From Daucus carota subsp. sativus (Eukaryota > Streptophyta > Magnoliopsida > Apiales > Apiaceae), in the NCBI RefSeq assembly GCF_001625215.2, contig NC_030385.2:2287135-2351134 (forward strand): DNA of 64,000 nucleotides, written 5' to 3'. Under the pieces are notes generated by a model that searched no databases, was not told the origin of the DNA, and worked only from the letters and a program-made list of their open reading frames with translations. Numbering within the stretch: position 1 is the stretch's first letter; every line of letters begins with the position of its first letter. The translations under genes and the position numbers were made by a program. Shown one piece after another: positions 15,837 through 59,900 of this stretch.

Positions 15837-16842
15837 ATTGGGTGCATGTTTGGCAAAAATTTATATTAAATTTTAAGTACATTTATAATATTTATGGGAG
15901 TTATTATGATCTATGAGTTATATCTGCTTTGATCTTAATATATGTGAATTTAGGCTACCAGCTATTCTCTGCTAATCGTTTTCGAGTTCTGTTTATCGCC
16001 TACTACACAAATTTTCAATGTATTAAACAGACCTGTTTTATTCGACATTTCATACCTAAAAATAAAATAAATGACTAAATTCTGCTACCTAGGAAGGTAG
16101 AGGAATTCAGAGATCTTGAGTACTCTGTCTAGTTTTACATAGCTCTGTTGTTTCGGCTTAAGTTATGCATAGATCTCAAACTATATGTTCTTTTTTGGAA
16201 TATTTGAGATCTTTCGGACCGATTAAGCAAGGCCGAATTATCAGTATTGATATGGTGCACCAAACCAGCAGGTAACTGCAACGATTACAACAGTTTCAGT
16301 AATTGTTTTCTAAAAATTGTCAGCAGAAATTGCAATTTGAAAAAAAAATAAAATGTATGCAAGTGCTTTTAGAGTTTTTCTGTTCATGATTCTGGTTAAG
16401 CTGGTACCCGAGTGTTAGTACTGCAATCTCCAGATACCAACCAGAGGGACAGGCCGAGACCTTTGCACTCTAAATAAATCTCCAACAGAGTGTCCTAGTG
16501 AAGTTCTCTAAATATATAATAAACAATGTAATTTTCTAAAGAGTCTATTAAATGATAATATAAAAATGTGGGAAAGAGCATCTAAAATACGGGAAGTAAA
16601 TATTTAATCATTAAAAATCAAATGAGGAATTAGTTAGACATTATCTTTTAAACTAGTTTTCTTTTAGTTATTAGCTCAAATGAGGAATGAATTAGCCATT
16701 ACTTTTTAAACTAGTTTTCTTTTAAGTTGTTATTACCGATTTTATGACTTAATCTAGAGTTTCTTATAAGTACAAATCAAAAATCAACCCTGCATTTCTT
16801 ATCCTCACACCAGCTCAATTATTAAATCCAAATGAGAACCTG
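15837..16842. other. Intergenic / promoter of At4g14100-like copy 1
   Basis: No gene. Part of this stretch (about 16400-16480, AGATACCAACCAGAGG and onward) is repeated at about 19110-19165 (GGATACCAACAAGAGG). The 60 bp before the start codon match the region before copy 2 (CCTGCATTTCTTATCCTC). Both mark the tandem duplication of the following gene. Confidence 0.55.
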
Positions 16843-20047: not shown

Positions 20048-20805
20048 CAAGATTAATTTGTTTAAATATTATAGTACTATATCAAACTTATGAAGTTCAA
20101 AAATAAATAATGAAGAGTGAGAAAGTGGACAATATCTGTAATATAATTATATAAGTATGTATATATGTGTGTGTGATCTTTAACATTCGTCCTTATCATT
20201 ATTGATGATCGTCTAAAACAAGTATTAACGATCCAAATATTTCATGGATCAAGTTAGGACTTATCTAATCTTGATCAAGTCGTCAGTATAAACGTCATTA
20301 TATTAGTTCGAGTCGAATCAAATTATATTTATGCATATCCTAATCAGGTATTATGGATATCATTATGAATTTCAAAATTAATTTAAATTTAAAATTTTAA
20401 TAAAATCAAACATATTATCAACATTTAAACTAAATTATTAATAGAAATTTGTAAATAATAGATTCTTACATCGTCCTGGATTCTATGCTAGTTTCGTGTT
20501 AAATTACCAACGATTTTATGACTTATTTTAGAATTTCACAGAATAATCTTTTTGATAAATTGTTGCTAACAATCAAGGGACTAATCATCAGAAATTTTGT
20601 AGTGTTGTATAGATTATTTGTCTTTTGTCAAAAATATCAATCAAGTAATTCGTGAGACATACTAATAAGAGAAAATATCATCCGTGTAGGTCCAATCCTG
20701 TGTAATAATAGTACAATACCATGAAGTACTACCAATAAAAAATCAGCCCTGCATTTCTTATCCTCCCACCAGCTCAAATATTATTAAACCCAAATAAGAA
20801 CCTAA
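18461..20805. other. Intergenic between copies 1 and 2
   Basis: No gene seen. About 18620-18730 matches the sequence after copy 2 (GGCACTTGAATAA, GAATATAATGAAA, TTTAAGATTGTC), so the duplicated unit includes downstream sequence. About 18870-19110 shares a block (GTACAAGTACGAAGTTGGCT) with 29370-29410 and 35630-35660. A 99-bp tandem repeat and a (TA)n tract follow. Confidence 0.5.
19831..20015. repeat. 99-bp tandem duplication plus (TA)n
   Basis: A block beginning CGTATTAAATTTTATGAG and containing CTCATAATGAGTACTTTAAT.. and GTGTCTCAAAAAATTAATTT is present twice, at about 19831 and 19930, nearly identical. It runs into a (TA)n stretch ending near 20045. Confidence 0.85.
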
Positions 20806-22715
20806 ATGATTCTCATGGCACCCACCAGCCTCTGTTTCCTCATTTTATTAACCACATCTCTAGTCTCATCATCAAGCCTCACCGATCCAACTCCTAAGCC
20901 ATGGCCACTACAATTCCACTCAACCATGATTGCAAAAATCGAAAACGGCACTCAACTCGAAATCCTCAATTTATGGTACGACTGGCCTAATGGAATCAGC
21001 ATGAGCATTGTGCAGAAACAACTAGGAAAGCTTCTTTATGGTCCGGAATGGAATAACGGCACTTCTTTTTTCTATGCTTTGGACTCAAGTGAAGAGTGTA
21101 GAGTCACGCAGTTCGACGTGGGGATTGTGAGACCCAACTGGATTGAGGGTGCCAAGTACGTTGGACAAGAGTACATGGATGGGTTCTTGTGTAATGTGTG
21201 GAACAAAGTGGACTTTATTATTTACTATGAAGATGTCGTGTCGAAAAGACCCGTGGCTTGGTTTTTCGTCGAAGGTATGTAAAGCTTTTCACGTAGAGCC
21301 GTAACTGAACTGTTCGGCAAGCTTGTTCGATTTGGTCGTGTTCGAGTTCGTAAACTCGTCTGATAAGTTTATCGAAAATGAGTTTGAACACTATTTTTCA
21401 TCTAAACTTAACGAACCGAACTGAATTTTAGGGTGTTCAGGTCGTGTTCGGTTCGATAAGCTCTTGTTCGGCTCGAGTTCGATAAACTCGTGTTCGTTCG
21501 ACAATAAATAAAAATATTTATAATATTATATGTAAATATGATATATAATATCCATAATTTAGGATTTAATTTTATTTTATAATTGTAGAATTATTTAAAA
21601 TTGATATTGTATATGTTAAAAATATATAAATAAAGTATTTGGTTTAATTTCTTTCATTAAATTAATTTAAAAATAGCCTAAATGTTATTTAAAAATATAG
21701 ATTGTTCGCGAGCTGTTCGTGTTCGGTTCGTCTATTACCGAACTCGAGCTCGGACAAAAAAATTTGTTCGATAAAGTTATCGAACATTGTTCGATTTGTT
21801 AAGATCTTGCTCATGTTCGGTAAGAGTTCGTCGGAATTCGGTTCATTTACGGCTCTACTTTCATGTGTCTTAGAAATTATCAGATGTTCTTTAAATTTTG
21901 AGTCTGAGCAAAAATCAAACTTATGATTTGAAAAGATTTCATGGGACAACAAAATCAAACTCATTTTATTAATGATTTTATGAAATTTATAAAATGATGA
22001 ATTTTAATATCATCTTTTATATTTCCTCCATCTCAAAATAATAGTCTTGTTTTGATCTGACTTAATCAAGTTGATATTTGATCAATAATTGCACATACTA
22101 TATGATTAAAGAAAAGTTCGAAAATCATATAATTAGAATTTAATGTTTTCTTAATGGATTCCGTTAAAGTCAACTGATACTTAACGGCGCAGTGACCAAA
22201 ATGCAAATTTTTATCAGTTCAGTGAGTTGACTGCAAGTTAAATCTAGTTTTGTAATCCGTTTGCAAGCTTTTTGAGTTCAGTGACGTAACTGCAAGTTGG
22301 TCATGAGTTCAGTGATCTTTTTGCCTATTTACCCTGAAAATATTAGACAATGTGATTATTGAAAAGTCACACAGGAGTAAATTTTTATTTAGAAATTCCG
22401 GTAGCAACGACTAAATTAAAATGAAGACAATATATTAATTCGTTAAAATCTATCAAAATTTAACGTTTTAATTTCGAGGTTGATATAATATTTGGTGTTG
22501 CAGGAGGAGGAAGTGAACATATAATGACATTCGAAGTGGGAAAAGTACTTGATCAAAGCTATTGGCAAGCTCCTGTATACTGTTTCGATGATGCTGCTGA
22601 ACAGAAGAAGAATGCAAATATGGATATACTCAATTCTGGTGCTGCAGTTGAAACTGGAGCTTATGAGAGTTTTATGCGATCATCACTTGGGATGAAACTC
22701 AAGGCTGCACTTTGA
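20806..22715 (+). CDS. At4g14100-like secreted protein, tandem copy 2
   Basis: Two exons, 20806..21274 and 22504..22715, encode 226 aa with a phase 1 intron and donor GTATGT. It differs from copy 1 by a handful of residues in exon 1 (for example SLCFL for TLYFL, and FVEG for FVQG) and keeps the signal peptide, both NGT sequons and the cysteines. Exon 2 lacks one tyrosine (TGAYESF against TGAYYESF) but has an extra serine (MRSSLGMK against LRSPGMK). Both copies look functional. The intron is longer than in copy 1 because of a 564-bp hAT-like insertion. Function as for copy 1 is not established. Confidence 0.85.
21294..21857. mobile_element. hAT-type non-autonomous element in intron of copy 2
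   Basis: Left end TAGAGCCGTAACTGAAC and right end GTTCATTTACGGCTCTA are inverted. The flanks are TTTTCACG (21286-21293) and CTTTCATG (21858-21865), 6 of 8 identical. The intron of copy 1 has a single CTTTCATG (17321-17328) with no insertion, which is the empty site. The interior is rich in TCGTGTTCG/CGAACTCG words around an AT-rich centre. Confidence 0.88.
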
Positions 22716-25778: not shown

Positions 25779-27280
25779 ATGGCAATTCAGTTAAAACCCA
25801 CATTCCTCACTCTCCTCATCCTCTTGACACACTCCACCTCAACTCCAACCCCAACCCCATGGCCCGAACAGTTCCACTCAGCCATATTCATGACCACCAA
25901 CGGAACCCTTCTCCAGAAAGTGGACTTGTGGTACGACTGGCCCAACGGCAGAAACTTCAACATCATCCAGTCCCAGCTGGGCAAGCTTCTGTATGACTTG
26001 GAATGGACTAATGGGACCTCTTTTTATTATACTCTGGATCAGAATCAGGAGTGTAGAGTCGTGCATTTTGGAGTGGGGATTCTTCCGCCGGATTGGCTGA
26101 GTGGTGCTAGCTATGTTGGGCAGAAGAGGGTGGATGGGTTTTTGTGTAATGTGTGGGAGAAGGTTGAGTTTATTACTTATTATGAGGATGTTGCGTCCAA
26201 AAGACCTGTTTCTTGGACTTTTTATACAGGTATATTTGTTACTAGTACTATTTTGATCTTGTTTTTTGGAATTCGGTGTTACGGCAGAGTTTCGATTAAT
26301 GAATATTTGATAAACGGATAATCTCGTCAAATGCATAAGATAACTACAATTAATGTCTTCGTGTCCATATCATATTGTGAGAATATTAGGATGACGGAAA
26401 GTTGAACTTGATACCAACCTTAAGACATTAGAGAAATATCTCAAAAATGGATCTTATCTTATATTTCAACAGATTTCGGTCCGAGCATTACATGACAATA
26501 TAATATATCAAGATTTTTTCTGTGTTATTAGGATGTGATGGTTGAGATTTTTTTTGTAGTACTTAAGTTACTGATTGGTTGTCTATATTAAGAATTGAGT
26601 ATTCTGTTAATTATTAAATTTAACCTACTCATGTGTCTTGCTCGAAAGGTCTGAAAGTGAGTGTGACATGTATGCGGAACTTCTCAAACTTCTTGTACTG
26701 TCTGTGGCGATATACAAAATTGTGGAACTAAGGGCATTCATCCCTCTTCTAGGCTCTTCGTCCTGTTTGATTTTATAGTTAGTACCAAAGATCTTAATTT
26801 TGACATTGCAGTAGCTGAGATTATTGTATATGTTTTCTAGTATATTTCTTGGGTTCAAATTCTGAAATAATTTGCAAAATCCTGTTGTGTTTTGTGTTTT
26901 TTAAGTTGCAAGAAACCCTAGAAAATAATTATCTTTTAGAAATATCTCCAGAGTTCTGGTGATGCACCATGAGTGCATTATATTGATGTATATATGATCT
27001 TTGGTAGTGGTTCATAATATGAAATGTTATGATTTTGAGGTGGTGAAATGCAGGAATGACTGCGCATATTATGACATTCGAAGTGGGAAAAGTGCTTGAT
27101 GATCCCAACTGGCAAGCCCCTGTATACTGCTTCAACAATGCCGCTGAGCAGAGGACAAAGGGGGATTTGAAGAGAAGTGGCATTGCAGTTGAATCCGTAG
27201 CTAGTACTCAATCTACTAATGGTCATCACCAGGGAAGTTTAATGCGATCGCTTGCAATGAATCTTACTGCTGCACTCTGA
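25779..27280 (+). CDS. At4g14100-like secreted protein, tandem copy 3 (diverged)
   Basis: Two exons, 25779..26229 and 27054..27280, encode 225 aa with a phase 1 intron as in copies 1 and 2. It has a signal peptide ([17 protein letters not shown]), a TPTPTPWP stretch, [70 protein letters not shown] and a serine/histidine-rich C-terminal part. The sequons and cysteines are conserved. Divergence from copies 1 and 2 is much larger than between those two, so this is the older paralogue. It keeps an open frame and good splice sites. Function is not established. Confidence 0.85.
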
Positions 27281-29653: not shown

Positions 29654-30730
29654 AATTTATCTAAATAATAGAATAAATTATTTCTGATTTATAAAATAGA
29701 AGTTTGGAAATTATTATTATTTTATCAATTTCGAATAATATATTAGATTTTTTCATTTGATCATATTTTTCGGTCTTGTAACTGAATTGTACGAATTCGA
29801 TCTTAATTTTCTAAAATTCGGTGCATTGGGTCTAGACCAAAATAAAAACAATATGATACAGTTTTGAAATAAAAATTGTACCTACCGAATAGACTAAATA
29901 ATCCGAATAATATATTAATATATATTTATATTTATATAATATATATCGTATACATAATATCTAATAAACTATAACTATAATCTTATTTGTAATTAATATT
30001 TGCAAGGATATAATTTGTAATTATTTTTTAGAGTAATCTAATTTGTAATTTTAATTACATATATCTCGATGAACTGGTGATAATTAATCTATCCTTCTTT
30101 TTATGATAAATTGTGATTTTAGTTTATTTATAATATAATTTTTTCTTAAAAGTTTTAGGTTTTTTATGATAATTTTTTTTATTTCAATTTGGTCGGGTTC
30201 AGTCCATAATAGAATTTTAGTTCGGAAAAAATAACATTTCAATTCTCGCTTTAATTTGTTGGGTCCGATTTTGACCAAACTAATCGAATGCTCAGCCTAG
30301 ACCTGAACCTAAAATGAGTTAGAAAATTTTAAACCCAACATATTTTGTAATTATATGAAGTCCCTTTCATTAAATTTATAGCTAAATTATCTTATATATT
30401 GAGGTCCATTATCCTTTTAAGATTTTTTTTCAACATCCTAAAATAAAAACAAGCAAAAACAAGATAAACATGAATAATATATAAAATTTAAATGTATTAT
30501 ATAAAACTAAAAAAGTTAATAAAATTCTATTAAGAATACCTTTGTATGTATTAAAAGAAAATATTATAAGCTATATTCAAGTGAAATTTTTTAATTGGAT
30601 ACTAAAAAAATTAATAATAAATAATAATACTAAAATAAAGACATAAATAAGTCAACAAATTAAATAGCTAACAAAATGACACTTGATTGCCTCAGGCCAC
30701 ATATATAACCACAATCAAGTCTTCCATAAA

Positions 30731-35908: not shown

Positions 35909-36365
35909 AAAAAGTTAATTGTACCTTAATTAAGGGCGTTAATTGTGCCTTAATAGAGGGTATTTATTGTGCTTTAATTGAGGGCGTTAATTGTGCCTTA
36001 TTTGAGAGCGTTAATGTTTTATTATTTGTGCCTTGATTAAGGGCATTATTTGTGCCTTAATTTAATAAACAAATATCGTTCGCTTTTTTTATTCAAAATG
36101 TTTTGTTAGTCGGTGATAAGATAGAATATTTATTTGTAATTTGGTATTTCTTGTCACTGATATATGACATTCTGTGTTTTATTTCAGGTTGTTTAAAAGA
36201 AAGGTGATTTCTTATCAGACATTAAAGTTTTATTATCTAAAAGTCCCCGGTCATCTTGCATGTTCGATGGCTAGATGATAAGTTTTTTTGAATGAAAGGA
36301 ATTCCCTGGTCAAGATCTTGCCGGAGATACTCGTTGAGATTCATTCTCATTTTCAAAAAAAAAAT
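35909..36365 (+). mobile_element. Retroposon with 24-bp tandem repeats and poly(A) end
   Basis: Unit 1 lacks this block (29905-29920 reads AATAATCCGAATAATA). Here AGTCCGAA precedes and AGTCTGAATAA follows it, a likely target duplication. It begins with about six units like TTAATTGTGCCTTAATTGAGGGCG (35910-36060) and ends CAAAAAAAAA. Its 3' part resembles 1195-1310. Confidence 0.65.
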
Positions 36366-36373
36366 AGTCTGAA

Positions 36374-36384
<11 letters not shown>

Positions 36385-36408
<24 letters not shown>
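36385..36408. repeat. (TA)n tract, left flank of the MULE
   Basis: A pure (TA)n run directly abuts the left end of the 11.3-kb element. A matching (TA)n run (47758-47771) abuts the right end, so insertion was into a TA microsatellite. Confidence 0.85.
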
Positions 36409-36412
<4 letters not shown>

Positions 36413-36455
36413 TAATACTCCAATAGAAACCAAATTAAAATAGAAACTAGAAACC
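36409..36455 (+). repeat. Left terminal inverted repeat of the MULE
   Basis: Contains TCCAATAGAAACC, AAATTAAAATAGAAAC and TAGAA, which pair with the reversed right end. The outermost 12 bases are diverged between the two ends. Confidence 0.75.
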
Positions 36456-36989
36456 ACAGGCCCAGCCCACTTTTTAACACTCCCAGCCCACTAAAATGAT
36501 CCAGCCCGCTTATACAAAACCCACTTGCACAGTTAAAAACGATACACACCGATACGATACACACGATACACACGTTTCGCGCACAACGGTCCATCACCTC
36601 CACTACTCCACTGTTCATCATCGCGCTGCTGCACCAAGCTTCAGGTACGTCTCTAATGGCGGTTTCTTCGACTTTTTCCCTCTTTTTTGTTCTAATTAGG
36701 TATATTACAGCTTCTACGAAGAAATTCGAGGCGATTTTTGGATCTCGGAACCGCAGCTCAAGCACCGCGCAAAATCACTTCAACATTTGTTTGAATAGGT
36801 ACTTTTCTGTAGTTTAGTAGTATTTATAGTTAGTTAATCATCTTAATCAACTCGTATTTTTAGTGTATGTCGGTTTTTTTGAATTTTAAGGGTTTTGTTG
36901 TATATTATTGTGAAAACTGACTTCAATCTACTAATGTTCTTTCATAACAGCTGTTAATTAGCTTATTTCACTCTGAAAGCTACTAAAAT

Positions 36990-39900
36990 ATGGCTAGAAC
37001 TAGAGGAGGTATGTTAAATTAGGGTTTTATCACTGTTTTTTTTAATTATTTGTGATTTCAAGCATTTACTTGTCTGAATATGTTGATTTATTGAATAATA
37101 TGTTGATGAATATGTTGCTGATTTGTTTAATTAATGAATATGAATATGTTGTTGATGAATAAGATGTTGATTTAGTGCATATTACTCATGTTAATGCATA
37201 TTACTAATCTCAGTTTGTAGAGTACGTAGAGTACTGATCTTAGTGTGTAGTGTGTAGAGTACGTAGAGTACTTAGTGCATATTAATCAACTTAGTGTAGA
37301 GTAGTTAGTACACAACCAGGCTGAGACATATGATTTTATAACATATCTAGATGTTAATCTAGATCACTTATCCAAAAGCCTAATTGACAGATTTTATAAC
37401 ACTAAGTTGAATCATGATTAAGCTCCCAAAGTAGAAACAAATGCCGTGGAAAAGTACTCTTTATCTTAGCTAATAAACTCAGATTTAGTATTGAAAAGAT
37501 GCTTAGCAATTAATAACTGACAGATATTAAAGCAAATATTTAACTGGTATCCCTCTGCCATGTTCAAACTCAAAGTTGATTTATGATGAATCAGGCATTG
37601 ATTCAGCACCAATGTCAAGCAGCTTAATATGATTATTTAAGACATGGCTAGCTAATTTTATGAATTAAGTAATTAACATTAAGTATTACTAATCAATTCT
37701 TATTAGTGAAGACTGACTAATAATAATTGATTTGAGAATTGCAGACCTTCTTATTAGTGAAGACTAACATGTATAACCGAAATATTTCTTTAATAAAACT
37801 CTTGTAGCAGAGCTAAGTGCTAAGTGTTTCTAATCACATAATTTTTTAAGCCTAAATAACAGAACAAGTTAGAATCTATTTTCTTCTCTTGGTAACCTCA
37901 ATTGAATTTTATTTATAGTATATATCGAATGTCTGTATATTTGTGTGTTTTGTTTGTGAGATATCTATCTTTTTAAAGTAGACTAGTAGCTTAAAATCTT
38001 AATTCGTTTTAAAGGATTAGATAGGTGAATATCACTATCACTAAAATATATTAACTATATCACTAAACTATATTAAGTATATCACTAAAGTATATTAAGT
38101 ATATCACTAAAGTATATCAACTAAGATCACTAAAATACAACTGCTTAGTATAAATTTGGGAATATACTTCTTGTTAAATAGTATATTTTACATGTATTTG
38201 CAAGTTTTATGATTTTGCAGGTTACATAGTTCAATGCAGAAGAAGTACAAGACTTCGTGCACATAGTTTGTCAAAGTTTACAAACACTGCAGATACTCCT
38301 GTAGATTTAGAATCCGAAGATCAAGCAAACATGAATACCAACACCATAGGAGACAAAAGACCACTTGCAAAAGTCTATCGACGTCCAGATAACAAAGTCA
38401 TAAAGGCTACTGCTGGAAGAAATATCAAAACTCTTGTTGTATGTGATCAACTACATTATTTCTTAGTTGTATTATTGATTTATAAATTAATCTAAATCAT
38501 TATTTTGTATGATTTCATAGGGAAATAAACTTGTTGATGAAGTAGAAGGGGATGAACATAATTGTAATAATCTGGTGGATGAACAAGATGGAGATCAAGA
38601 TAATGACAAACAAAGTGATGAAGATATGCAAGAAGGTGAAGAAGACAGTGCACAAGAAGATAGTGCAGAAGACATGGAGCAAGACGATAGTGCACAAGAA
38701 GGTGAAGAAGGTGATGACGATAGTGCACAAGAAGGTGAAGAAGGTGATGAAGATAGTGCAGAAGAAGAAGATGATGAACAAGACGATGTACTAAACGAAA
38801 GTGAGGAAGAAAATGAGGATGAACAAGAAGAGGATGAAACAGAAAATCAAGCTCAAGTCAACAATGCACAACCAAAGATTAAAATAACAAAATACAAAAG
38901 GAAAAAGGTACACTTTCTTCACTTTCTTCATTATTAATTATATAGTATATATATCGAATGTGCTTAAATTAGATTTTAAAGCATCGACGTTTATATAGTC
39001 TTTAATTATAGTATATATTGAATGTCTGTATATTTGTGTGTGTTGTTTGTGAGATATCTATCTGTTTAAAGTAGACTAGTAGCTTAAAATCTTGATTTGT
39101 TTTAAAGGATTAGATAGGTGAATATCACTATCACTAAAATATATTAACTATATCACTAAACTATATTAAGTATATCACTAAAGTATATTGAGTATATCAC
39201 TAAAGTATATCAACTAAGATCACTAAAATACAACTGCTTAGTATAAATTTGTGAATATACTTCTTGTTAAATAGTATATTTTACATGTATTTGCAAGTTT
39301 TATGATTTTGCAGGTTACATAGTTTTATAAATTTGTGAATATACAACTGCTTAGTATAAATTTGTGAATATACAACTGCTTAGTATATTGTTTTATGTTC
39401 TTAACAGGAAGCTGCATTTGAAACTCATATACCAAGAAAAAGGATTGCTGGAACATTATATCCACTATTGAAGTTCATGAACAAGGATGTTAAGGTATTT
39501 TTTATTTATTTCGTTACTTAGAATTAGAAATTTGAGCACAATATTTTAGTGATGCCCTGCACTGTCGTTTCTTGTGGTTTCTACAACACTAATTATTTCC
39601 TCTTATTTCATTAGAAAACAGAAGGGGCTAAACATATAAATAAGAAAAAAGACGAGGTCAAGATAAGGATATCTCCAAGGCATTTTAGTAAGATGGTAGG
39701 TGAACTCACAAAAGAGCAGAGGGACTGGGTTACAAGAGCTGGTTTTGCACTCTTACTGGATTTTGAGCTTGACATTTTGCCAACCAAAATCGCCTACAAT
39801 GTACTCCAAATCTTTGATCACCACTCAATCTCACTGAAGCTGAAGGATGGAGATATTAATATTACAAGTGAAGATGTTTATGATGTGTTAGGCCTGCCAA

Positions 39901-42900
39901 ATGGAGGACATCCTATTATTCTGGCATCACCTGGAAAGTACAGTCAAAGAATCAAAGATTGGCATGCACAATTCACTTTATCTGATCAAATAACAACACA
40001 GATGATTGTTCAAGTGATGAAAAACCAAGAAGTTAATGATAACTTCAAATTAAACTTCCTTCTTGTTATGTCAAATGTGCTTATTGGTACAAAAGGAGCT
40101 TCTTATGTGGACAAACAACTGCTGCAACTTGATGATAACCTTGACAATCTCAAGAAGTATAACTGGGCAGATTTCCTCCTAGGCTACCTTGTAATTGGAA
40201 TGGAGAGTTGGAACAGAACAACAACAACATTTTTCCGAGGATCACTAATCTTTCTCACTGTAAGACAACAATCTAAATCTTTTTTTTTCTCGTCCGTATA
40301 TTCTAATAGAATATAAAATCTAATTAATAGTTTTACTTGTTTCACTTTGTAGTTGTTATATGTCGACCGTGTGAGGTACAAAGGAATGAACCTGGTTGAT
40401 AGACAATTTCCTTCCTACAATGGTTGGACTCTAGAAATGTTGAGACAAAGACAAGAAATTGAGGTGATTGACGGAGCTTTTGGAGTTGGATCAATCCAAC
40501 CAAGTTTAAAAGAATATCTACAAAAAATTGATCCTTCTGAACCTCCAAAGACAAAGGTATGATCCTGTTTGTATATGGAATACGTAGTCGAAAACCTATC
40601 TTATTCTTTTTATATAAAAATGTGTTTCATCCTTAATTGTAGGTAAATGAGAATGAACATGGAGACTGGGATACGTGGCAGTATTGGTCAGAGGTGGATA
40701 GAATTGAAAAAGATTACCTGAAGAGAAAGGAGTCAACATCACAACAACCTCATGAATCAACTCAGTGCCAAAGTCCACAAAATACACAGTATTACACTCC
40801 TCCAACAGAGGCAGCTGATGGAAATGTTGAACAAACTGAAGAGGTACATTATATATGAATTAGTAACATACTACTAAAATTCATGCAAATTATCACTAAA
40901 AACTACTATATATATCACTAGAGTATATTAGATAGATCACCTATTAAAATATTATAATACTACCATATATATCACTATATTTCAATTCTAAATTTTGCAT
41001 TGACTTCTCAGGATGTACTTCATGATTTACGTAAAAGGGCAGAGGAACTTGTGGACATAAAGTCCAAATTTGATGAAGATTTAGTGAAAGCAAGGGAAAA
41101 GTTTCCCGATAATAAAAACTTTGCTATTATCGGTGAAATGCTGAAAGAATATCTCATTCCTAACCAGGAAACTGGTGATGATTTGGGTGATGAATTATCA
41201 CCTGAAATTGTCGCCAGCCTAGAAGTTGTTGAAGAAATGGACAGAACCGACATTGAGATCCTTGCTGAGCAACAGAAAGATGATGAGAGATATGTCCCTC
41301 CTTTTTCCCTTGGCCTGGATGACATAGAAAAAGAAAGCAATCAAAATTTGGTCACGCCAGAGCCAGAACCACAAGAGAGAGAAAAAAGCAAGAGGACAAA
41401 GAAAATTGGTCCATATCAAAAATCACCCTATGTCAACAGGGTGATTGATATCAAGCAAAGAATGAACAATGAAGACTTTGGATATTGGGTCTTCTTGCTA
41501 AAGAAAAAGGGCGAGCTATTGTAAGTATTTTGCCCTTTCTGCTTTATACATTACTTTATCTGCCTAATACTAATTAATATATATAATTACAGGGATGATT
41601 TGTTTAGATGGGAGGAAGTCAGATGTATAAAGGAACACTTGTTGACGCTGAAACCAAAAACAAGTGTATACTACTCTGTGATTGATACATGGGCAACAAT
41701 CCTAAATGACAGTGAAAAGTACAAGGCAGATGGGTCACCACTAAGACTTTTCTGCACAATAGGAGATTTGGTAATATATACTGCCTTCGTATATATATTC
41801 TAATTAATTTCTTTCAGTTATTTCATAACTACATACACCAGAATCTAATATATTTATACCAACCAGATTTTCAGCATTGATGCAGAAAAGAAAGTCACCG
41901 AAACTTATGATTCGTTTGCCAGTGGGATGGACAAGATTCTTCAAACTTTTTCCATCAAAAAAGTGGAAGACGTGGAAATGGTAAATGTCATTTCTTAACT
42001 AATTTTGACATAGATCTCAACATTTCTCAAATATCTTTAACTAAAATATCTCTTAATATGATTACAGGTGTGCTTTCCTATTAATAAATATGAGCATTAT
42101 TATTTGGTATGCTATGGTATCAAAACCATGGGATACTTTATAATTGACAATATTAAACGTGAAGCACAGCCTAAGATGTACTATAGCAGAGTTTTGGAGG
42201 TTTTGGTAATATATTTTTTTATCCTTCATTCCACTATTATGTATATAAACATGCACTGTTTTAAGTCCACTATACTAATATTTTACTTCTCTTTTACAGC
42301 ATTCTCACTTTTGCAATTATATAAGTAGGAATGAAAATCCAAATTTGGGATCAAGAGTGCGGAAAATGAAGCCTCGTTTTGTGAAAATGCCATGGCAGAC
42401 TACTGACAATTCCACAGATTGTGGTATCTTCCTCATGCGCCATATGGAAACCTTCAAAGGAGATATTAAAAACTGGAACACTGACTTAACAGAAGAAGGG
42501 GTAAGATTAGTTTAATATTTTACATACTTATATACTGCTTTACATTTTAGTGATATAGTTGACATACTTTAGTGATATACTTAATATAGTTTAGTGATAT
42601 AGTTAATATGTTTTAGTGATATAGTTAATATGTTTTAGTGAAATTGATTAAAGTGTATATAGCTTTGTAATTCAAATGTGTATGCAGCATGTCCTTAATT
42701 TCTTTTCAAATTGCTCTGTTTATTAGGCTTAAAAAGTTATGTGATAACAAACACTAATAAAAAAATTATCATATTGCAGCCAACACAGGATAAACAAATA
42801 ACTAGGCTGAGGTTCAAGTACAACACAGCAATCCTATCTTCACACCTGAATGAACTGAAAGAGCCTATCACCACAGAAGCTGTAGCCTTGTACAACACAG

Positions 42901-43058
42901 CAGAGAAGCATAATATCATCAACGTCGTCCTAGCTGGAAAAGTTGCAGAAAAGTTTCCAACTAAAAAATCCGGCAAGAGAGTGAAATTCGCGGTGAACTT
43001 AATAAGTTCTTTCCACGAAGCAGAAAGGTCGTCTCAAGAAGGACCAACTCCTTCTTAG
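36990..43058 (+). CDS. Transposon-borne ULP1-type cysteine protease (C48 family)
   Basis: Thirteen exons join into one open frame of 1059 aa: 36990..37008, 38221..38438, 38521..38907, 39408..39494, 39615..40259, 40353..40556, 40643..40843, 41012..41520, 41593..41770, 41867..41980, 42068..42205, 42300..42500 and 42780..43058. All introns are GT-AG. The N-terminus (MARTRGGYIVQCRRSTRLR) is basic. Residues 80-208 form a highly acidic region with DSAQEGEEGD repeats. A helical plant-mobile-like region (DFELDILPTKIAYNVLQIFD) follows. The C-terminus holds the ULP1 catalytic set: His864 (EHYYLV), Asp881 (FIIDN), Gln933 (MPWQTT) and Cys941 (TDCGIF). ULP1 proteases cut SUMO from proteins; in MULEs the role is unknown. 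A complete catalytic set and no stop or frameshift suggest recent activity. Confidence 0.9.
37911..38231 (+). repeat. 321-bp internal direct duplication, first copy
   Basis: Repeated at 39004..39324 at a constant offset of 1093 bp with only a few substitutions and no gap. It contains several ATCACTAAA-type motifs and the splice acceptor TTTTGCAG/GTTACATAGTT used by exon 2 of the protease gene. Confidence 0.9.
39004..39324 (+). repeat. 321-bp internal direct duplication, second copy
   Basis: Copy of 37911..38231 now lying in intron 3. It keeps the acceptor sequence but is followed by a short tandem repeat (TATAAATTTGTGAATATACA units, 39325-39387) instead of coding sequence, so that acceptor leads nowhere useful. 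Confidence 0.9.
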
Positions 43059-43606
43059 ATTTAGTGCATTGTTTTACTGCACTTTTATAGAATATTAGAA
43101 ACTGATTGAACAGAATTATTAGATGGCTGAAAATTATCAGTCCTGTTGAGACTGAAAATGATTTAGTGGTTTGTTTTTGTAAAGATATGGTTATTTTGTT
43201 TTTACCAGCTCAAAATGCAATGGTAAATATTTGGCTTTTTTACTTTTGTTATTGTTTCATTTTAGTTTTATGATTTTTCATTGTTTTCATTACACAGTAA
43301 AGCAGGATATCACTAAAAAACCACACATATCACTAAAACTTGGGATGTATACTACTAAATTACACTGATAACACCACTAAATTACATTACCTATATCACT
43401 AAAAACTAACTCATTTTCACTCCAAAACTTGACAAATTCAGTTTATATATTCAATATAAACTGACAATGTATCAGTACTCATATGCTTTATAAAGACAAT
43501 TTATAAACAATCAAAATGTACTCAGAAAACATAAAATCAAAATGTACTTAACAATTTATAAAGACAAGTGCACAAGGTCTTTTAAAATTGAAAATTAAAA
43601 TCATAT
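43059..43606. other. Spacer between the convergent MULE genes
   Basis: Holds both 3' UTRs. At 43305-43405 it carries repeated ATCACTAAA motifs (TATATCACTAAA, ACACCACTAAATTACA). Confidence 0.6.
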
Positions 43607-46600
43607 TCACAACATATTCGAAACTACAGCTCCTCCATCCTTCTTTTTCTTCGGACAAGTTCTCGAATCATGAGTGGTTGCCGAACATTCTTTACATCTT
43701 CGAACTCTTTTATTTGCTTTTGTCATTGCTTTCTCTCTATCACTCACAAGACGCTTGAAATAATTTCCCTTGTTCCTGGAAACAGTTGGTGCAAGAATGG
43801 TAATCTCTTCAACCGGCTGTTCACCTACCATAGCTGCCATATGATCCTTTTTAGTAAAATCAACAGAATCTCCATCATACTTTTCAAAATCACTACTTAT
43901 CTGCTTAATGATTTTGTGAACATAGTCAAGCTTATCCATTTCAACTCCAGCTTTGCTAAGAATCTGACGAAAATCAAACCATAAGTTTGTCAACTTCAAC
44001 GACACTTGCTCCATTTTAAAATAATCCGAACACACAACATTAGATTCCAATGAAGTGCCACTTTCTGCAACTTTCATCCAACGATTAAGCACGAGACTCC
44101 TTGGAAATTTTGTGACACCAATCTGCTTTAAGCCACAGAAAGCATGCCTACAAACAATTCCACACATAACAAATTGTTTGCATGAACATACGGCATGTGA
44201 TTTGCTAACAGTAACCTGCAAAATGAATCATAAATCACCATTCAAATCACCATTTTGAACCATTACCAATATGAGATATGCTTCAAAAATAAAATGACAT
44301 AAAAACCAAAGTTCGGCAGGTGGTCCAGTACATTTACTTCCAATCCAGATCACTACTAATGACTAATTGCAATACAAAACAACTACTAATGCCACTACAA
44401 TTTATCAGAATGCAAAATATTTTAATAATGCATTACTAAAATTATATTATGCATATTTTCAAATATTTTATATTTACTTTCTGTTCCACAATAACAATTA
44501 CTACTGTAAAAAAAATATAAATCAAAATTAGAATATATAAAATACTACTATAAAGGGGAAAACACATACCTTAAAAAGTTTATCTTTAACTTTGACATCC
44601 TTTATTTCAAAATGAGTTACCCCATCAACTTCTTCACTCATTCTCTTGATTTGCATATCCAAGCAAGATGCCAAAATTTCTTCTTGAACTTTGTAAAAAA
44701 TGGAACGTGTAAATAGCTCAGCTGCATCATCTTCAATGAACCATCTTGATAAAATGTTTGGTTTGCTTGAGTTAGACTCATGGTCTAAACGTTCTGTTTC
44801 ATTCCGCTGCCTATGCATTGCACTCTCAAAACGTATCCAAAACTCACATAAAGTATCACCTTGCTTGTGAAACTGTGAAAAGAAAAAATTTTCACTTTCG
44901 GACCTTGAAGTTGTCCTCATCAAGCCAAACATAGGACTGTCCCTGAAATAGGCAGGAATCCACGACTTTCTTATGTCATACATATCTGATAACCATTTGT
45001 TATCTTCCAACTTAAACTCTCCTATAACCGCTTTCCATCCACTTTCAAACTCATCAATTTCCAAATTCGATGACCATATGTAAGTTTTCATTTTCTCCAT
45101 AAAGTCTGTTTCCTTACACAAACGATTCCCAAGCTGCAATATTATGGAAAATTACATAAAATATATGACAGTAAATTTCAGATGCTAGGAACCAAATTTC
45201 TAAAAAACAACTAAAAAACTACCTTAATAGGGAATTTCTGCATTATATGCCACATACATAGGCGATGCTTGCTAGCAACCAAATCATTATCACCACAAAA
45301 TGAAGCCGGCACAGATACCTTCATTGCAGGGCACTGATCAGTTATAAACACCACTGGATTGCGTCCCATGGCCTTGACAAAATGTTTAAAGGCCCAATTA
45401 TAATGAGCAACATCTTCTTTTGATAACAAACAAGCAGCAAATGTGACACATCTATCATGTTTGTCAACACCAGTGAAAGGCGCAAAAATCATATTATACC
45501 TGAACATAGATAAAACAGATTAAAAACCACATAAACTAACATATACCACTAAAATACACTGCAGACATCACTAAAATATATTTAGGGTATCACTAAAATA
45601 TACTGAGATTATCACTAAGGTACTGCAAATATAACTCCAGTATACTATTGTCTACTGCACCTTGAGCCTTGTTAAAAAGATTAATTAAAAAAATTACAAA
45701 TATACATACTTTACTTCATAGTTCCAGACAAGGTATTGTAGTATAATATAAACCATTATCGACATTCTAACAACATTACATAAAAAGAAAACTAATAATT
45801 CTATTACTAAAAGAAAACAATTTGAAATGTAAAATAACTTACTTGTTAGTATCAAAAGTGGCATCAAATGACACAGCATCGCCGTATATTTCAAAGTTCC
45901 TCCTACTAGTTGGATCAGCCCAGAAAAGCATAGTCAAATGCCCGTCACCATCAAGCTCATAAGCAAAATAAAATGATTTTGATGTCTCCTGTAATACTTT
46001 AAACTTGTCAATCAGCATCTGTCCATCCCTTTCACCGACAAATTCTTTTAAATCCCTATTAAAATTCCTGAAATCACGTAATGTTGCCCCAACATTACTA
46101 TATCCACCTGTCATCTCTTTGACCAAGCTAAATGCCTTGCTGCAGCCGATATTTACCTTCGCAGCATCAAAAACAAAACTTCGCAAACTAACTGTCATCT
46201 CTCTACTAGACCTCAGAAACTGTCTACCACTTTCACTAGCAAGCGGATGGTTGTGAAGTTCAACAAAATTGAAAATATAATATCTGTTCTGGCTCCTAAT
46301 TTTCATGACCACTTTTGCTTTACATCCACACCTCCGTGACACAGTACGTCTTTGCCTAATTCCTTCAGAATGACTTCCATCAACAAAACCTTCCTTACTA
46401 CACACAAAATGTTTCAAAATTATGGTACCATCAGCATCTCTCTTCTCCGTTGTTTTTCGTACATCAAAACCCCCTAGCCTCCCATACTCTCTGTAAAAGT
46501 TGTACGCCTTATCTAAGCTATCAAATGACTGATTTTGAAACGGTACTTGACTTCCATCAACAGAAATAGGCATAAAATACTTCATACCACCAGGAGAGAC

Positions 46601-47259
46601 AATGCAATTCGTCACTGATTTTTCGCTTTCTGTTGAAGAAACAGGAATACTAACACTAACATTAGACGAATCACCGCAACTTGAACCTGAAATACAACAG
46701 ACATACTCAAAAATTATATAAATAATACTATAATACTCTAACAGGATCATACTATAACTGCCTACTGCATCACATTGAAAATAATAAACAAACACTACTA
46801 ATATACTGCAACACCTACACACTAACTCAGTCATCAAAAACTTGCAATCATACATTAAAAATCAACAATACAGCAACTACATATCTAAAATCTATCCAAA
46901 ACACATACACTAAAAAACACACAATTCCAATACAACTAAATTATATTAGCTATATGACTAAAAATCATATATAAACACAATTACTATAACTAACAATCAT
47001 CAATCCAGCAACTACATGTCTAAACTCTAACTAAAACACAAGAACTAAAATATACACAATTCGAATACAACTAAATTATATTAGACATATCACTAAATAG
47101 AAACTACAAGAATATGAGCATGCCTAAACTACAAAAGCAATATGAGCATGAAAACACTGTAATCTGATATAATCATCAAATTATATCAAAAAACAAAAAC
47201 AGTGAACAACAAACTTTACCTTGATTATCACTAATCTTCGTTAAGTCTGATATAATCAT
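43607..47259 (-). CDS. FAR1-type MULE transposase
   Basis: Five exons join into an open frame of 777 aa: 47259..47220, 46686..45843, 45499..45223, 45133..44570 and 44215..43607, with GT-AG borders and agreeing phases. Domains in order are a FAR1 DNA-binding zinc finger (AYNFYREYGRLGGFDVRK, CSKEGF, RRCGCKAKV, ELHNHPL), a MULE transposase core with Asp288 (SFDATFDTNKY), Asp349 (FITDQCPAM), a CxxH near KHRLCMWH and Glu466 (RTTSRSESENFF), a SWIM zinc finger (CSCKQFVMCGIVCRHAF, Cys585 to His599), and a C-terminal zinc knuckle (RRCKECSATTHDSRTCP). It is related to the domesticated FAR1/FHY3 regulators, but its place inside an element with inverted ends makes it a transposase. All catalytic residues are present and the frame is intact. 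Confidence 0.93.
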
Positions 47260-47712
47260 CTTCAGCAATTCGAATCTACTTCAACCACACTTTCTCGAGC
47301 TCGAATTATAGACACAAAGCAACAAAGAGAGAGAGCTCCAGAATAACAGAGACAGAGAGCTTCAATCAAACGTCAAAAACAGACAAAAGCCAGCTCGAGT
47401 TAGAGAGTCGAAGCTCGTGTTAGAGACACAGAGCAATAGAGACAGAGAGATATCGAAGCTCGAGCAATAGAGACAGAGAGCTCGAGTTAGACAGAGAGAA
47501 GACAGTAATCGAAGACTACAGTTTTAATGGCGTCGCTAAACTTAGAGAGAGAAAGCTGCTAGGCGCTGAAATCATGGAGCGAAGAGAGAGAAACGGAAAT
47601 CAGTTATGATATTCAATTAAACAAAATCTTTGTTTTTTATATTTTACATATTTTATTATTTGAATGGCTATGATTGAAAGTAAATTATATTAGATAGATG
47701 GTCAAGATTAGT

Positions 47713-47757
47713 TCTAAGTTTTTATTTTAAAATTGGTTTCTATTTGATCCTTGGCCT
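47713..47757 (-). repeat. Right terminal inverted repeat of the MULE
   Basis: Read on the minus strand it gives AGGCCAAGGATCAAATAGAA, then ACCAATTTTAAAATAAAAAC and TTAGAAC, which aligns with the left end. The same start (AGGC.AAG.GATCAAATA) opens the small element at 55452. Confidence 0.75.
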
Positions 47758-47989
47758 ATATATATATATATTTTGATATATTTTTATATAATATATATCG
47801 TATATATAATATCTCATTAATTATAACTATAATCTTATTTGTTATTAATATTTGCAAGGATTTCATTTGTATTTTTTTTTTTTGAGAGTAATCTAATTTG
47901 TAAATTTAATTACCTATATCTCGATGAATTCGTGATAATTAATCGATACTTTCTTTTATGATTAATTGTGATTTGTTTAGTTTATTTAT

Positions 47990-56944: not shown

Positions 56945-59900
56945 CTACCAAGGTTTCAGATCGCCCACAGGGCCTGCAGTCCAGTTCAAGATCTTTTCTC
57001 CAGGCTTCAAGAATACGCTTCGGTCGTGCGGCAATTTTCGGGCAAGCCCGTTTAAAATTTGATGAAAAGCATCCCCAGGTTGAGCGGGTTGTGGAAACAA
57101 CATAGCTTGCTTCATCGAAGGATTTGCCAGCAACCTCTGCTTTTTCAATATGACCTCTGGGGATATAGAGGTGAGCATCGTATCCAAATTTGGAACATCC
57201 TTCTCTGGCACGTAAACCCCGATTTCTTCCCACGGAATGGCATCAGCAAATGGCAAAACAATGTCATCTGCAATAATGACAGGAATGCAACCAAATATCA
57301 CAGCTTCAACTAATCTAGGACTCCATGGGGCCCAGCCTAGTGGACATAAGCAAAATATTGCTCGTTGCATATCTTCATAGTAAGTGGTCGGATGCTCCGT
57401 AGAGATGTCAAAAAGTGGGTTGTTCTTGAAGTTCTCCCATACTGCTGCTCTTGCACCTCTGTAGGATGAAACAATTAACTAAATAAGACTAAAGCATGTA
57501 TCATTATCACATCACAATTCACAGATAGAATAATTTAAGCTCTCAATATGAATATTATGATATTTTTGGATATGTATATTATAATCAGGTAACAACACAT
57601 ATATATTTCTTTTTCTTCTTTTATATATTATGATGCTGCCGCATTCCCAAATATAGGCCTAAATTTAAGTTCTCAAAGTGATGCACCGTCAGTGCGTGAT
57701 TATATTGTAGGACATCATGACCCAGAGGACCCATTGTGTTGAAAAACAAATGTTTCATGTCAGTTCCAGAACCCAATTGTTTGAGAAACCATCATGACCC
57801 GGAGGACCAAGACATGACACGTGCACTAATGCATATTTTCTGTAAAATGCTTACTTAGGATTCCTAAGTAAGGAAACTTTTCTAGAGACACCGCAAATGA
57901 ATCATACTGTATGATTCGTGGTGAGTGATTCCGGGTAAGTTTAACATTCTTAAGTAGCATAATGAAAGCACCAAAAGCTTAGTAATGCTCGTCAATATGA
58001 TATGGAACATACGGGTGAATCAATAAGAATGACAAAGGTTTCTAGTATGTACCTTGCATAATAACCACCTTCTGGGTCGTTTCCCACATCATAAAATAAA
58101 CCTCTAAAATAAACAAAGATGGATCTAGGCGTGTTTGGTGGGATCAGGTGAGACTGCATTTTCTGTGGAGGAGCATAAGGCGGAACTGTGATGGAGCCAT
58201 CCTTTAAGCAAACATGATTTCGCTGTCCAAAAGTTTGAACTAATGTAGCACGCTGCAGCAATGTAAGAATTCCCCTTTCAATTGCTTTCTCTTCCTGCAA
58301 TAACAAAAAATTGTTTCAGGCCCAGTGTAAAATATTGAAAGTTCAAAAGACAACCACGAGTTTGTGATTGTGTATGTGTGAGTGTGCGTGAGAGAGTACT
58401 TGATAATGGAAGCATGCTCCAAAGTCATGAGGTGTTATAAAGAAGTGATCCGCCCCTTCCGTCCTATTCCAGTAAGGCCAATTAGACGAGATAAGTTGTA
58501 TTGCACTCCTCATCATACGAGGTGATTTGAAGGGCAGAGGGAGACCATTTGGTGTCAAGTCACAAGTTGTATACACAGGGGTATAGAACCAATCAGCTTC
58601 CTCAGGATTGAGAGTTCGAACAGGGCTCGATAAAAGAAACCGATGCATATAAATTTCTGCAGCAAACATATGCGTAAGGCATCTTGGGTCCTTCTGCAAA
58701 ATCTTTTTGTTATATTTGCTTGGAAGCTCATAAACGAAAACTTTTAGTCTTCCCACAGGATCATCTTCCAAGACATCACCAGCACTACCTAATTTTTACA
58801 AAATCAAGCACAGATAAAGACTCGGATTTATTTGATATTGCACCACAAGTTCAGGGATTCAGATATTATGAAAGCAGAAAATGCTGAACTTTTAAGTACA
58901 TATAAGGGAGGAAAATAGCCTAGTTGCACAATAAACCATCCACTTGTCAAAATATTTGGAAACAGAACTTTTTGCAAATCAATTACAGCAAGTTTATAGG
59001 TTTAACAAACCTCACAAGACAGAAAAAGAGGTTCTTCATTGTACAAAATATAAGTGCATAAGGTCCAAATAAGATATTATTACCTGCAAGAGGTACAATT
59101 ACAGCTAATTTGCTACTATAATACAATTCTTATATGAACCCTGCTAAACCACATAACGGACTTAAATGACAAAATACTACTACACAAGTCCCTCTAAAGT
59201 CATTAGCTAATATGATGGGTTCAAATCAATTATGTTTGATATCTTTTCATAGTCGATCAAAGTCGTAATCCTTTCAGTTCCATCATATAATTAAGCTTAC
59301 ATCAGATACTTTGATTCCGTATTGTAAAAGGCAGCAGCCTAACGTCCTTATTAGAAGCTGAGTCACTTTTTAATAGTTATTTAAATTAGATAACTAATTA
59401 AACCCTTCAGCAAAACTACAGAGTACTGAACGTTAAACTGACCCGCAGACAACTACATAACAGTTAGTGAGATGCTAAGGTATATATATCAACCTAGGCT
59501 CAATAGGCTGTAATACTAAAATTCGGTTTTCAAGAACATTAAGCTTAAAAGTTAAGGCACAATCACATATATCTTAATCAAATTCAGTTTCCAATTGTGC
59601 TTAATTGACATAATTTATATGTGATTGGGTTAGTAAAGGGAACTAAACGTGAAATAAATTTTAATACCAACTCCCCACCTATAATTTCTATGTAAATAAT
59701 TTCAATACAGGGTAACAAATGGAAGCTAGCTAAAAAGTATCACCCTCACCATAACTGGAAAACCTTCCTGAATAGGCTTCGGTGAAGGCACGTCTAAAAG
59801 TTATGCATTTATATGTGAAAAATGCCAAGTAAAAAAGAAAAGTGAAAACTTTATGGCTTAATTAGTTACAGACTTTGTTCAAATTAAAAGAGCAGTCACA

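What the first reader, a model, noticed from the sequence alone, without database searches (positions are those of the whole stretch)
36409..47757. Apparently intact 11.3-kb MULE encoding a ULP1 protease and a FAR1-type transposase
Seen directly: imperfect inverted ends, an insertion point bounded by a homologous empty site in unit 1, and two convergent genes that splice into uninterrupted frames (1059 and 777 aa) with all catalytic residues (protease H864/D881/Q933/C941; transposase D288/D349/E466). Known: some plant MULEs (Kaonashi-type) carry ULP1-like proteases whose role in transposition is unresolved. Here the pairing with a FAR1-family transposase, both intact, suggests a recently active autonomous element and a good subject for asking what a SUMO-type protease does for a transposon.
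Basis: partly seen in the sequence, partly recalled or inferred. Interest (0 to 1): 0.85.

Follow-up and report, generated by a model that had tools for sequence, protein, structure and literature searches.

The report
Jumping gene with probable anti-silencing kit
This is an apparently intact plant jumping gene that carries, besides its cutting enzyme, a SUMO-protease-like protein and about twenty evenly phased copies of a nine-letter DNA tag in its non-coding parts, which together look like a device for escaping the plant's gene silencing.

Summary
An 11,347-bp Mutator-like element (36410-47756) lies in a (TA)n tract; both borders recur in seven of ten other copies fetched (about 97-99% alike), and a paralogous empty site exists. 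Both spliced genes are open (1059, 777 aa). Pfam: FAR1 + MULE in the transposase; weak DUF1985/plant-mobile-domain and C48 protease matches in the other protein, with its catalytic H/D/Q/C kept in sister families. The ULP1-Jittery pairing is not new (melon, grapevine). Short elements sharing the ends carry it; sister families with the same gene pair carry the same (C) or diverged (D, E, F) phased motifs. This is the anatomy of the Arabidopsis VANDAL/VANC anti-silencing system, here on a FAR1-type transposase. Best explanation: the ULP1 protein binds the arrays and lifts silencing. Binding by the transposase is the main rival. New variant of a known kind; binding and demethylation are inferred, not shown.

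The parts
36410..47756 (.). Mutator-like element, 11,347 bp, inserted in a (TA)n tract
   Evidence: both ends recur in 7 of 10 other copies fetched
36400..36409 (.). left target tract, TA repeats (target-site duplication not resolvable from the repeat)
47757..47766 (.). right target tract, TA repeats
36410..36453 (+). left terminal inverted repeat (imperfect)
   Evidence: shared with short non-autonomous elements
47712..47756 (-). right terminal inverted repeat (imperfect)
   Evidence: shared with short non-autonomous elements
36990..43058 (+). ULP1/DUF1985 gene, 13 exons, 1059 aa, open
   Evidence: exon breaks agree with sister family C
38683..38767 (+). 33-bp tandem repeat coding an acidic peptide repeat in the fast-evolving N-terminal part (dN/dS 1.30 for aa 1-236)
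39840..40256 (+). PMD/DUF1985-like region (aa 313-451), both matches below Pfam gathering score
   Evidence: dN/dS 0.35 for aa 237-455
41900..42824 (+). Peptidase_C48 (ULP1) domain, aa 828-982, spread over exons 10-13
   Evidence: 21.1 bits against gathering 20.7 when that part is scanned alone; 17.5 bits in the whole protein
42095..42422 (+). catalytic residues H864 (42095), D881 (42146), Q933 (42396), C941 (42420)
   Evidence: invariant in 4 of 4 sequences (families A, C, C, D)
43607..47259 (-). FAR1-type transposase gene, 5 exons, 777 aa, open
46238..46501 (-). FAR1 DNA-binding domain (aa 76-163)
   Evidence: Pfam E 7.7e-20
45235..45874 (-). MULE transposase domain (aa 285-383, contains D288, D349; E466 lies downstream)
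   Evidence: Pfam E 5.8e-21
38036..38137 (+). motif array in ULP1-gene intron 1: 5 ATCACTAAA, 22-23 bp apart
39129..39230 (+). motif array in ULP1-gene intron 3: 5 ATCACTAAA, 22-23 bp apart (lies in a 324-bp internal duplication of intron 1)
39545..39553 (-). single motif in ULP1-gene intron 4
40891..40900 (+). single motif in ULP1-gene intron 7
42544..42641 (-). motif array in ULP1-gene intron 12: 4 ATCACTAAA, 22 bp apart, opposite orientation
43308..43404 (+). 3 motifs in the spacer between the two convergent genes, 20 and 66 bp apart
45543..45618 (+). motif array in a transposase-gene intron (45500-45842), 22 bp apart
47088..47097 (+). single motif in transposase-gene intron 1
29903..29930 (.). 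paralogous empty site in unit 1

Best explanation
An autonomous MULE of the FAR1/Jittery transposase type that carries its own sequence-specific anti-silencing module. Step 1 (shown, apart from transcripts): the element encodes an open FAR1-MULE transposase and an open DUF1985/PMD-ULP1 protein, both with dN/dS well below 1 outside one repeat region. Step 2 (shown): its introns and intergenic spacer hold about 20 copies of (T)ATCACTAAA, mostly phased at 22 bp, so that neighbouring copies face the same side of the helix; short non-autonomous elements with the same ends carry the same phased motif. Step 3 (inferred from Arabidopsis VANC/KIU): the ULP1 protein binds the arrays through its DUF1985-containing part. 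Step 4 (inferred): tethered there, its SUMO-type protease acts on SUMOylated silencing or chromatin proteins and DNA methylation is lost across the element and its non-autonomous kin. Step 5 (inferred): the transposase is then expressed and moves both, into (TA)n tracts.
For: Motif: in a k-mer comparison made without choosing a word, ATCACTAAA came first: 22 in 5.7 kb non-coding, 0 in 5.4 kb coding, 0 in 52.6 kb outside; 500 first-order Markov simulations of the non-coding part give mean 0.25, maximum 2, and it lies in 8 different non-coding stretches. The top 9-mer of seven 10-kb control windows occurs 5-6 times. Non-autonomous kin: of 20 loci chosen by their end alone (20 of 34 short end matches), 18 hold TATCACTAA, tied with an overlapping word for the commonest 9-mer. 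Phasing: of the first 100 (all on contig 1) of 2,450 ATCACTAA pairs with 0-30 bp between them, 77 have period 22 and 13 period 21; of 29 distinct spacers 21 are at 21-22 (P 2.6e-19 if spacers were independent and uniform). Turnover: sister family C, ULP1 protein 38% identical over aa 6-521, has TATCACTAA as top 9-mer in one locus, 13 times; family D (transposase 51-68%, ULP1 part 27-37%) has no TATCACTAA but 23 AAATCACC, none in its approximate coding parts, phased at 20-23 bp; genome-wide 86 of the first 100 (contig 1) of 725 such pairs have period 20-22. Protein: DUF1985 similarity, DUF1985 being shown as a VANC domain (PMC5735166 passages); dN/dS 1.30 for aa 1-236 with peptide repeats, 0.35 for DUF1985, 0.27 for the protease, like the conserved domains and variable repeat regions described for VANC; catalytic residues invariant in families A, C, D. 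Precedent: VANC21 binds YAGTATTAY repeats in non-coding parts of VANDAL21 and removes methylation (PMC5735166 passages; PMC10398659 passages).
Against: No binding, methylation or expression data. Which protein binds the motif is not shown; motif sharing between A and C could track the transposase, which is as conserved (64-83%) as DUF1985 (64%). In short elements the motif sits just inside the ends, where transposase sites would be. DUF1985 and PMD matches are below Pfam gathering scores; the DUF1985 part was not seen in D and E (stretches fetched do not reach it) and the protease part was not seen in F. Within the family, motif bases differ less than other non-coding bases (10/1640 against 749/48067, P 9e-4) but not much less than their adjacent spacers (36/3952). 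A-family arrays are partly plain tandem duplication. F's count (7) barely exceeds controls. In family C at least one TATCACTAA (C1 locus, 8633) lies in a transposase exon match, as does one in the window's transposase exon 1. The two VANC motifs in the paper are unrelated to each other, whereas here all share ATCAC.
Confidence: 0.55

Rival explanations
1. The phased motif is a binding site of the transposase (its FAR1 domain), used for transpososome assembly or for autoregulation; the ULP1 protein does something unrelated to the motif.
For: In the short elements found by their right end (L052-L059) the motif lies about 45-100 bp from both ends in 7 of 8; the transposase is conserved (51-83%) across families A, C, D, F that share the ATCAC core; FAR1 is a DNA-binding domain (Pfam name).
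Against: In the autonomous element the nearest ATCACTAAA is 659 bp from the right end and 1.6 kb from the left, the nearest TATCACTAA 522 bp from the right (in an exon), and neither end region has even a one-mismatch TATCACTAAA, while introns in the middle of both genes hold arrays; arrays in introns and other non-coding DNA are the VANC pattern.
Confidence: 0.25
2. Minisatellite noise: 22-bp arrays arose by replication slippage in introns and were inherited by deletion derivatives; the ULP1 gene is a captured passenger.
For: Within family A units are about 90% alike; intron 1 and intron 3 arrays are one duplication; Benjak et al. read ULP1 in MULEs as repeated transduplication.
Against: Spacers between kept cores differ altogether (29 distinct spacers; units were picked by the core, so only the spacer diversity and spacing are informative); family D keeps the spacing with a diverged core; the ULP1 gene has dN/dS 0.49 overall and 0.27 in the protease; the gene pair with the protease part occurs in families A, C, D and E.
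Confidence: 0.12
3. The protease matures or deSUMOylates the transposase or host repair factors directly, independent of the motif.
For: Best solved-structure match of the domain is the SUMO protease SENP7, at a weak E 0.036; catalytic residues conserved.
Against: Does not account for the motif arrays or for the DUF1985 region; not tested.
Confidence: 0.08

Closest known systems
ULP1-bearing Jittery-like MULEs of grapevine and melon
   Same: Jittery-type transposase plus a ULP gene downstream (PMC2528002 section 10; the two multi-copy Jittery-like families are 11.9 and 14.4 kb; which carry ULP is in a figure not seen)
   Different: No motif arrays, DUF1985/PMD domain or phasing are mentioned in the parts read
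VANDAL elements with VANC / KIU (Kaonashi ULP) proteins, Arabidopsis
   Same: DUF1985 protein (some with ULP1), variable repeat region, short motifs in tandem in introns and other non-coding DNA (PMC5735166 passages; PMC13317346 passages)
   Different: VANDALs are described as non-TIR or with degenerate TIRs and are mudrA-type (type recalled in part); here a FAR1/Jittery-type transposase and short TIRs; motif ATCACTAAA is unlike YAGTATTAY or AGTTGTMC
MuTAnT / AutoMuTAnT, Medicago
   Same: Jittery-like transposase in five exons, insertion in TA microsatellites, many short non-autonomous relatives (PMC4486113, first of four parts read)
   Different: 4.9 kb, single ORF, no ULP1 gene described in the part read
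Carrot MiMs (MITEs inserted in microsatellites)
   Same: Short TIR elements flanked by TA stretches, for three families a putative autonomous Mutator (PMC8227079 passages)
   Different: Those passages name no ULP1 gene or motif; identity with the short elements here was not tested
PMD-containing MULEs of grasses and Amborella
   Same: Plant mobile domain carried by a MULE, with a speculation that it serves anti-silencing (PMC5418596 passages)
   Different: There PMD-C is fused to the transposase; here a weak PMD/DUF1985 match lies in the ULP1 protein

Membership tests
Mutator superfamily (MULE) | MULE DDE transposase domain with catalytic triad | tested here: met
   PF10551 E 5.8e-21; D288, D349, E466 present
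Mutator superfamily (MULE) | 8-11 bp target-site duplication | tested here: inconclusive
   flanks are TA (some GA/TA) repeats in the window and the copies, so duplication cannot be told from the repeat
Jittery/FAR1-type MULE | N-terminal FAR1 domain, C-terminal zinc finger (SWIM or CCHC) | tested here: met
   FAR1 E 7.7e-20; zinc-knuckle match E 0.0075, below gathering; a SWIM-like C-x-C...C-x-H is visible in the sequence but no SWIM match was reported; clade features from PMC6446971 table, passages. No tree was built
Kaonashi (KI) MULE | non-TIR, mudrA-type transposase | tested here: not met
   FAR1-type transposase; short TIRs shared with non-autonomous elements
Kaonashi (KI) MULE | ULP1 (C48) gene in reverse orientation to the transposase | tested here: met
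VANC-type anti-silencing system | element-encoded protein with DUF1985 (with or without ULP1) | tested here: inconclusive
   DUF1985 E 2.2e-4, 21.7 bits, below gathering 35.1; sister-family C locus C3:43667519 E 9.4e-4, also below
VANC-type anti-silencing system | short family-specific motif in tandem in non-coding DNA of the element | tested here: met
[quoted passage not shown]
   needs EMSA/ChIP and bisulfite data
C48 (ULP1/SENP) protease | H-D-Q-C catalytic residues in order in a C48 domain | tested here: met
   H864, D881, Q933, C941 invariant in 4 of 4 aligned sequences; 21.1 bits over gathering 20.7 with that part alone; activity not tested

The most novel reading that the evidence does not exclude
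A VANC/KIU-like anti-silencing system operates outside the VANDAL (mudrA-type) lineage: DUF1985-ULP1 proteins are coupled to FAR1/Jittery-type transposases in at least four, probably five, families of one genome, each with its own motif built on ATCAC and phased at two helical turns, and many microsatellite-inserted MITEs persist by carrying the same phased arrays; the SUMO protease is the effector brought to chromatin by the arrays.
Probability: 0.45. Interest if true: 0.8.

Novelty: new variant of a known kind. Interest (0 to 1): 0.62.

Why it matters
If right, it gives the open question of what a SUMO-type protease does for a transposon a direct handle: a named protein, a named nine-base target and a measurable spacing rule, in a type of transposase different from the one where anti-silencing was found. 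It would also explain why microsatellite-inserted MITEs keep sequence inside their ends: they would need the array to be un-silenced, not only the TIR to be cut. Comparing families A, C, D, E and F gives a natural series of protein and motif changes for finding the specificity-determining residues.

Tried and rejected
Considered and set aside: 'Kaonashi-type' (wrong transposase type and TIRs). TIR strength alone as proof of borders (weak; replaced by copies). Left border at 35911, suggested by the self-BLAST: rejected because 36365-36409 resumes homology to unit 1 and 35911-36364 is a separate poly-A-ended insert. A PDB profile search with four sequences did not improve on the single-sequence match (E 0.074 against 0.036). 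Structure prediction of exon 5 from one sequence gave pLDDT 34.7 and was not used. Rfam: no match at gathering threshold in the window. One scan of IMG/VR for relatives of the transposase confirmed none. The reversed-pattern control printed (400 + 420 against 1240 + 1210) is high, but not clean, because the reversed word AATCACTA is itself part of many arrays; a separate control word ACATCAAT was asked for five times and never answered; instead a local control was run: of 300 recurring 8-mer pairs outside the element 16 are at 21-22 bp. A genome count of the left end (TACTCCAATAGAAACC) was asked for twice and not answered. A further FAR1 family that might lack a ULP1 gene, which would help separate transposase from ULP1 binding, could not be fetched. 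Sasaki et al. 2022 (EMBO J 41:e110070) is not held; that it reports motif density and helical periodicity and anti-silencing of non-autonomous VANDALs is recalled, not read. Literature searches on whether such a system is described for Jittery/FAR1 MULEs: (searches list only the top 20 of 436 and 10 of 21,756); I saw none in the listings or in the papers opened, but Sasaki et al. may.

The host is inferred to be carrot only from assembly size, contig number and recall; no tool named it.
Full report
What is there. The element occupies 36410-47756. Its two ends, GAGTAATACTCC... and ...GATCCTTGGCC, are found with small differences in seven other copies among ten fetched, on several contigs, each abutting TA repeats on the right and TA or GA repeats on the left. 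The left 492 bases found 43 matches in the window's own 441-Mb assembly, seven of them besides the window at 96-100%; the right 498 bases found 44.

Genes. Breaks in the tblastn matches to sister family C fall on the same exon boundaries. Pfam: transposase FAR1 (E 7.7e-20) and MULE (5.8e-21), with a weak zinc knuckle; the other protein has weak, overlapping matches to PMD (1.1e-5) and DUF1985 (2.2e-4), and one to Peptidase_C48 (0.004; 3e-4 and just above the gathering score when that part is scanned alone). The nearest solved structure is SENP7 at E 0.036, mainly over the Cys box. The four catalytic residues are invariant in families A, C (two loci) and D.

Intactness and selection. Among the ten other copies, the ULP1 frame is open in three and the transposase frame in three; one copy (C9:30455525) has both (splice sites of copies not checked separately; several copies are incomplete for one or both genes). 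Counting each variant once, with one of two duplicate loci dropped, dN/dS is 0.49 for the ULP1 gene and 0.21 for the transposase; within the ULP1 gene 1.30 for aa 1-236, 0.35 for aa 237-455, 0.39 for aa 456-755, 0.27 for aa 756-1000 and 0.23 for the tail. Variants are few, the copies are related, and the figures are rough. The picture is a protein with a conserved DUF1985-like part, a conserved protease and a fast N-terminal region of acidic peptide repeats with in-frame 15-, 30- and 33-bp length changes.

The motif. A k-mer comparison without a chosen word put ATCACTAAA first: 22 in the non-coding parts, none in exons, none in the rest of the window. It sits in introns 1, 3, 4, 7 and 12 of the ULP1 gene, in two transposase introns (45500-45842 and 46687-47219) and in the spacer between the convergent genes. 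TATCACTAA occurs 20 times in the element, one of these in a transposase exon, and 3 times outside it. The seven other copies with both ends hold 19-23 ATCACTAAA each. Three ATCACTAAA with gaps of 8-20 bp occur 240 times in the genome against 7 for the reversed pattern.

Spacing. Neighbouring ATCACTAA in the element that lie within 70 bp are 20-23 or 66 bp apart and in one orientation (15 of 15 pairs). Genome-wide, in pairs allowed any gap of 0-30 bp, 90 of the first 100 listed (of 2,450; the list is in contig order, all from contig 1) have period 21-22; after merging alike spacers, 21 of 29 do. The spacers are quite different sequences. This is what one expects if a protein, or a row of proteins, must sit on one face of the helix.

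Non-autonomous relatives. Matches to the ends alone led to short elements in TA or GA tracts; in 14 of 20 loci an opposite end was found, some 500-690 bp away. Of 34 short end matches I fetched 20 by end alone; 18 contain TATCACTAA and 13 ATCACTAAA. From the rate outside the element (3 in 52.6 kb) about one locus in twenty would be expected. Carrot MITEs inserted in microsatellites are a known group whose propagation is described as unclear (PMC8227079 passages). Internally deleted members of a sibling family (C1, C5, C7) keep 5, 6 and 3 ATCACTAAA.

Sister families. Family C (two loci fetched; ULP1 protein about 38% identical over aa 6-521, 64% in the DUF1985 region; transposase 64-83%) has the same convergent pair of genes; TATCACTAA is its leading 9-mer in one locus (13) and occurs 10 times in the other, where telomere-like words rank higher; placement in coding or non-coding DNA was not worked out for C, and at least one copy lies in a transposase exon match. 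Family F has CAATCACTA seven times, ATCACTA spaced 22-23 bp; its count barely exceeds the 5-6 of control windows, and only the DUF1985 and middle parts of the ULP1 protein, partly duplicated, were seen in the 10 kb fetched. Family D has no TATCACTAA; its leading word is AAATCACC, 23 times, none in its approximate coding parts, spaced 20-23 or about 40 and 62 bp. Family E, of which only 3 kb could be fetched, also has both genes and AAATCACCAA at 20-bp steps. AAATCACC pairs occur 725 times in the genome against 50 for the reversed control, 86 of the first 100 (contig 1) at 20-22 bp. So the motif differs between families, keeps an ATCAC core, and keeps its phase.

What it works like. In Arabidopsis, VANC21 of VANDAL21 binds YAGTATTAY, a nine-base motif in tandem repeats in introns of VANC and VANB and upstream of VANA, and causes loss of methylation over the element; VANC6 uses another motif; VANC proteins have DUF1985, DUF287 and variable regions of peptide repeats (PMC5735166 passages). 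VANC genes with a ULP1 domain (KIU) are reported to do the same for their own elements (review PMC13317346 passages). The element here matches in protein parts, motif length, tandem arrangement, non-coding placement and family-specific motif. It differs in transposase type and in having TIRs. I therefore think the ULP1 protein is an anti-silencing factor reading these arrays (0.55), with transposase binding as the chief alternative (0.25).

Novelty. ULP1 in Jittery-like MULEs was reported for grapevine in 2008, with melon cited from earlier work (PMC2528002 section 10). TA-microsatellite targeting by a Jittery-like MULE is known from MuTAnT (PMC4486113, first part). I saw no paper in the listings, or among those opened, that describes a motif system for FAR1-type MULEs, but the key paper, Sasaki et al. 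2022, could not be read.

Noticed in passing
window 35911-36364: Insert of about 455 bp beside the element, with four 24-bp repeats at its start, a poly-A end and near-repeated AGTCYGAA on both sides; part of it matches 54080-53986 reversed. Looks like a retroposon copy.
   Followed up: partly
window 37908-38231 and 39001-39324: A 324-bp stretch with the motif array and the intron-1/exon-2 junction is duplicated (97.5%) into intron 3 and kept in copies.
   Followed up: partly
window 2583-3965 (-): Uninterrupted 461-aa frame of the calreticulin family (Pfam E 8.6e-141).
   Followed up: no
window 56948-58795 (-): Two frames matching the C- and N-terminal parts of Exostosin GT47, probably one gene.
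   Followed up: no
window 16771-17313, 20730-21276, 25923-26216: Three related repeated units with frames of 158-196 aa that match no Pfam family at E 0.01.
   Followed up: no
L034 1035-1600: Short non-autonomous element with five exact ATCACTAAA, near both ends, beside long (TA)n tracts.
   Followed up: partly
L062 7902-8800: 200-bp tandem repeat, 4.5 copies, 97% matches, with telomere-like AAACCCTAA words, between the genes of a sister-family element.
   Followed up: no
L009-L011: A copy 99.4% identical over its left 3.7 kb carries an insert of about 14 kb inside the ULP1 gene.
   Followed up: no
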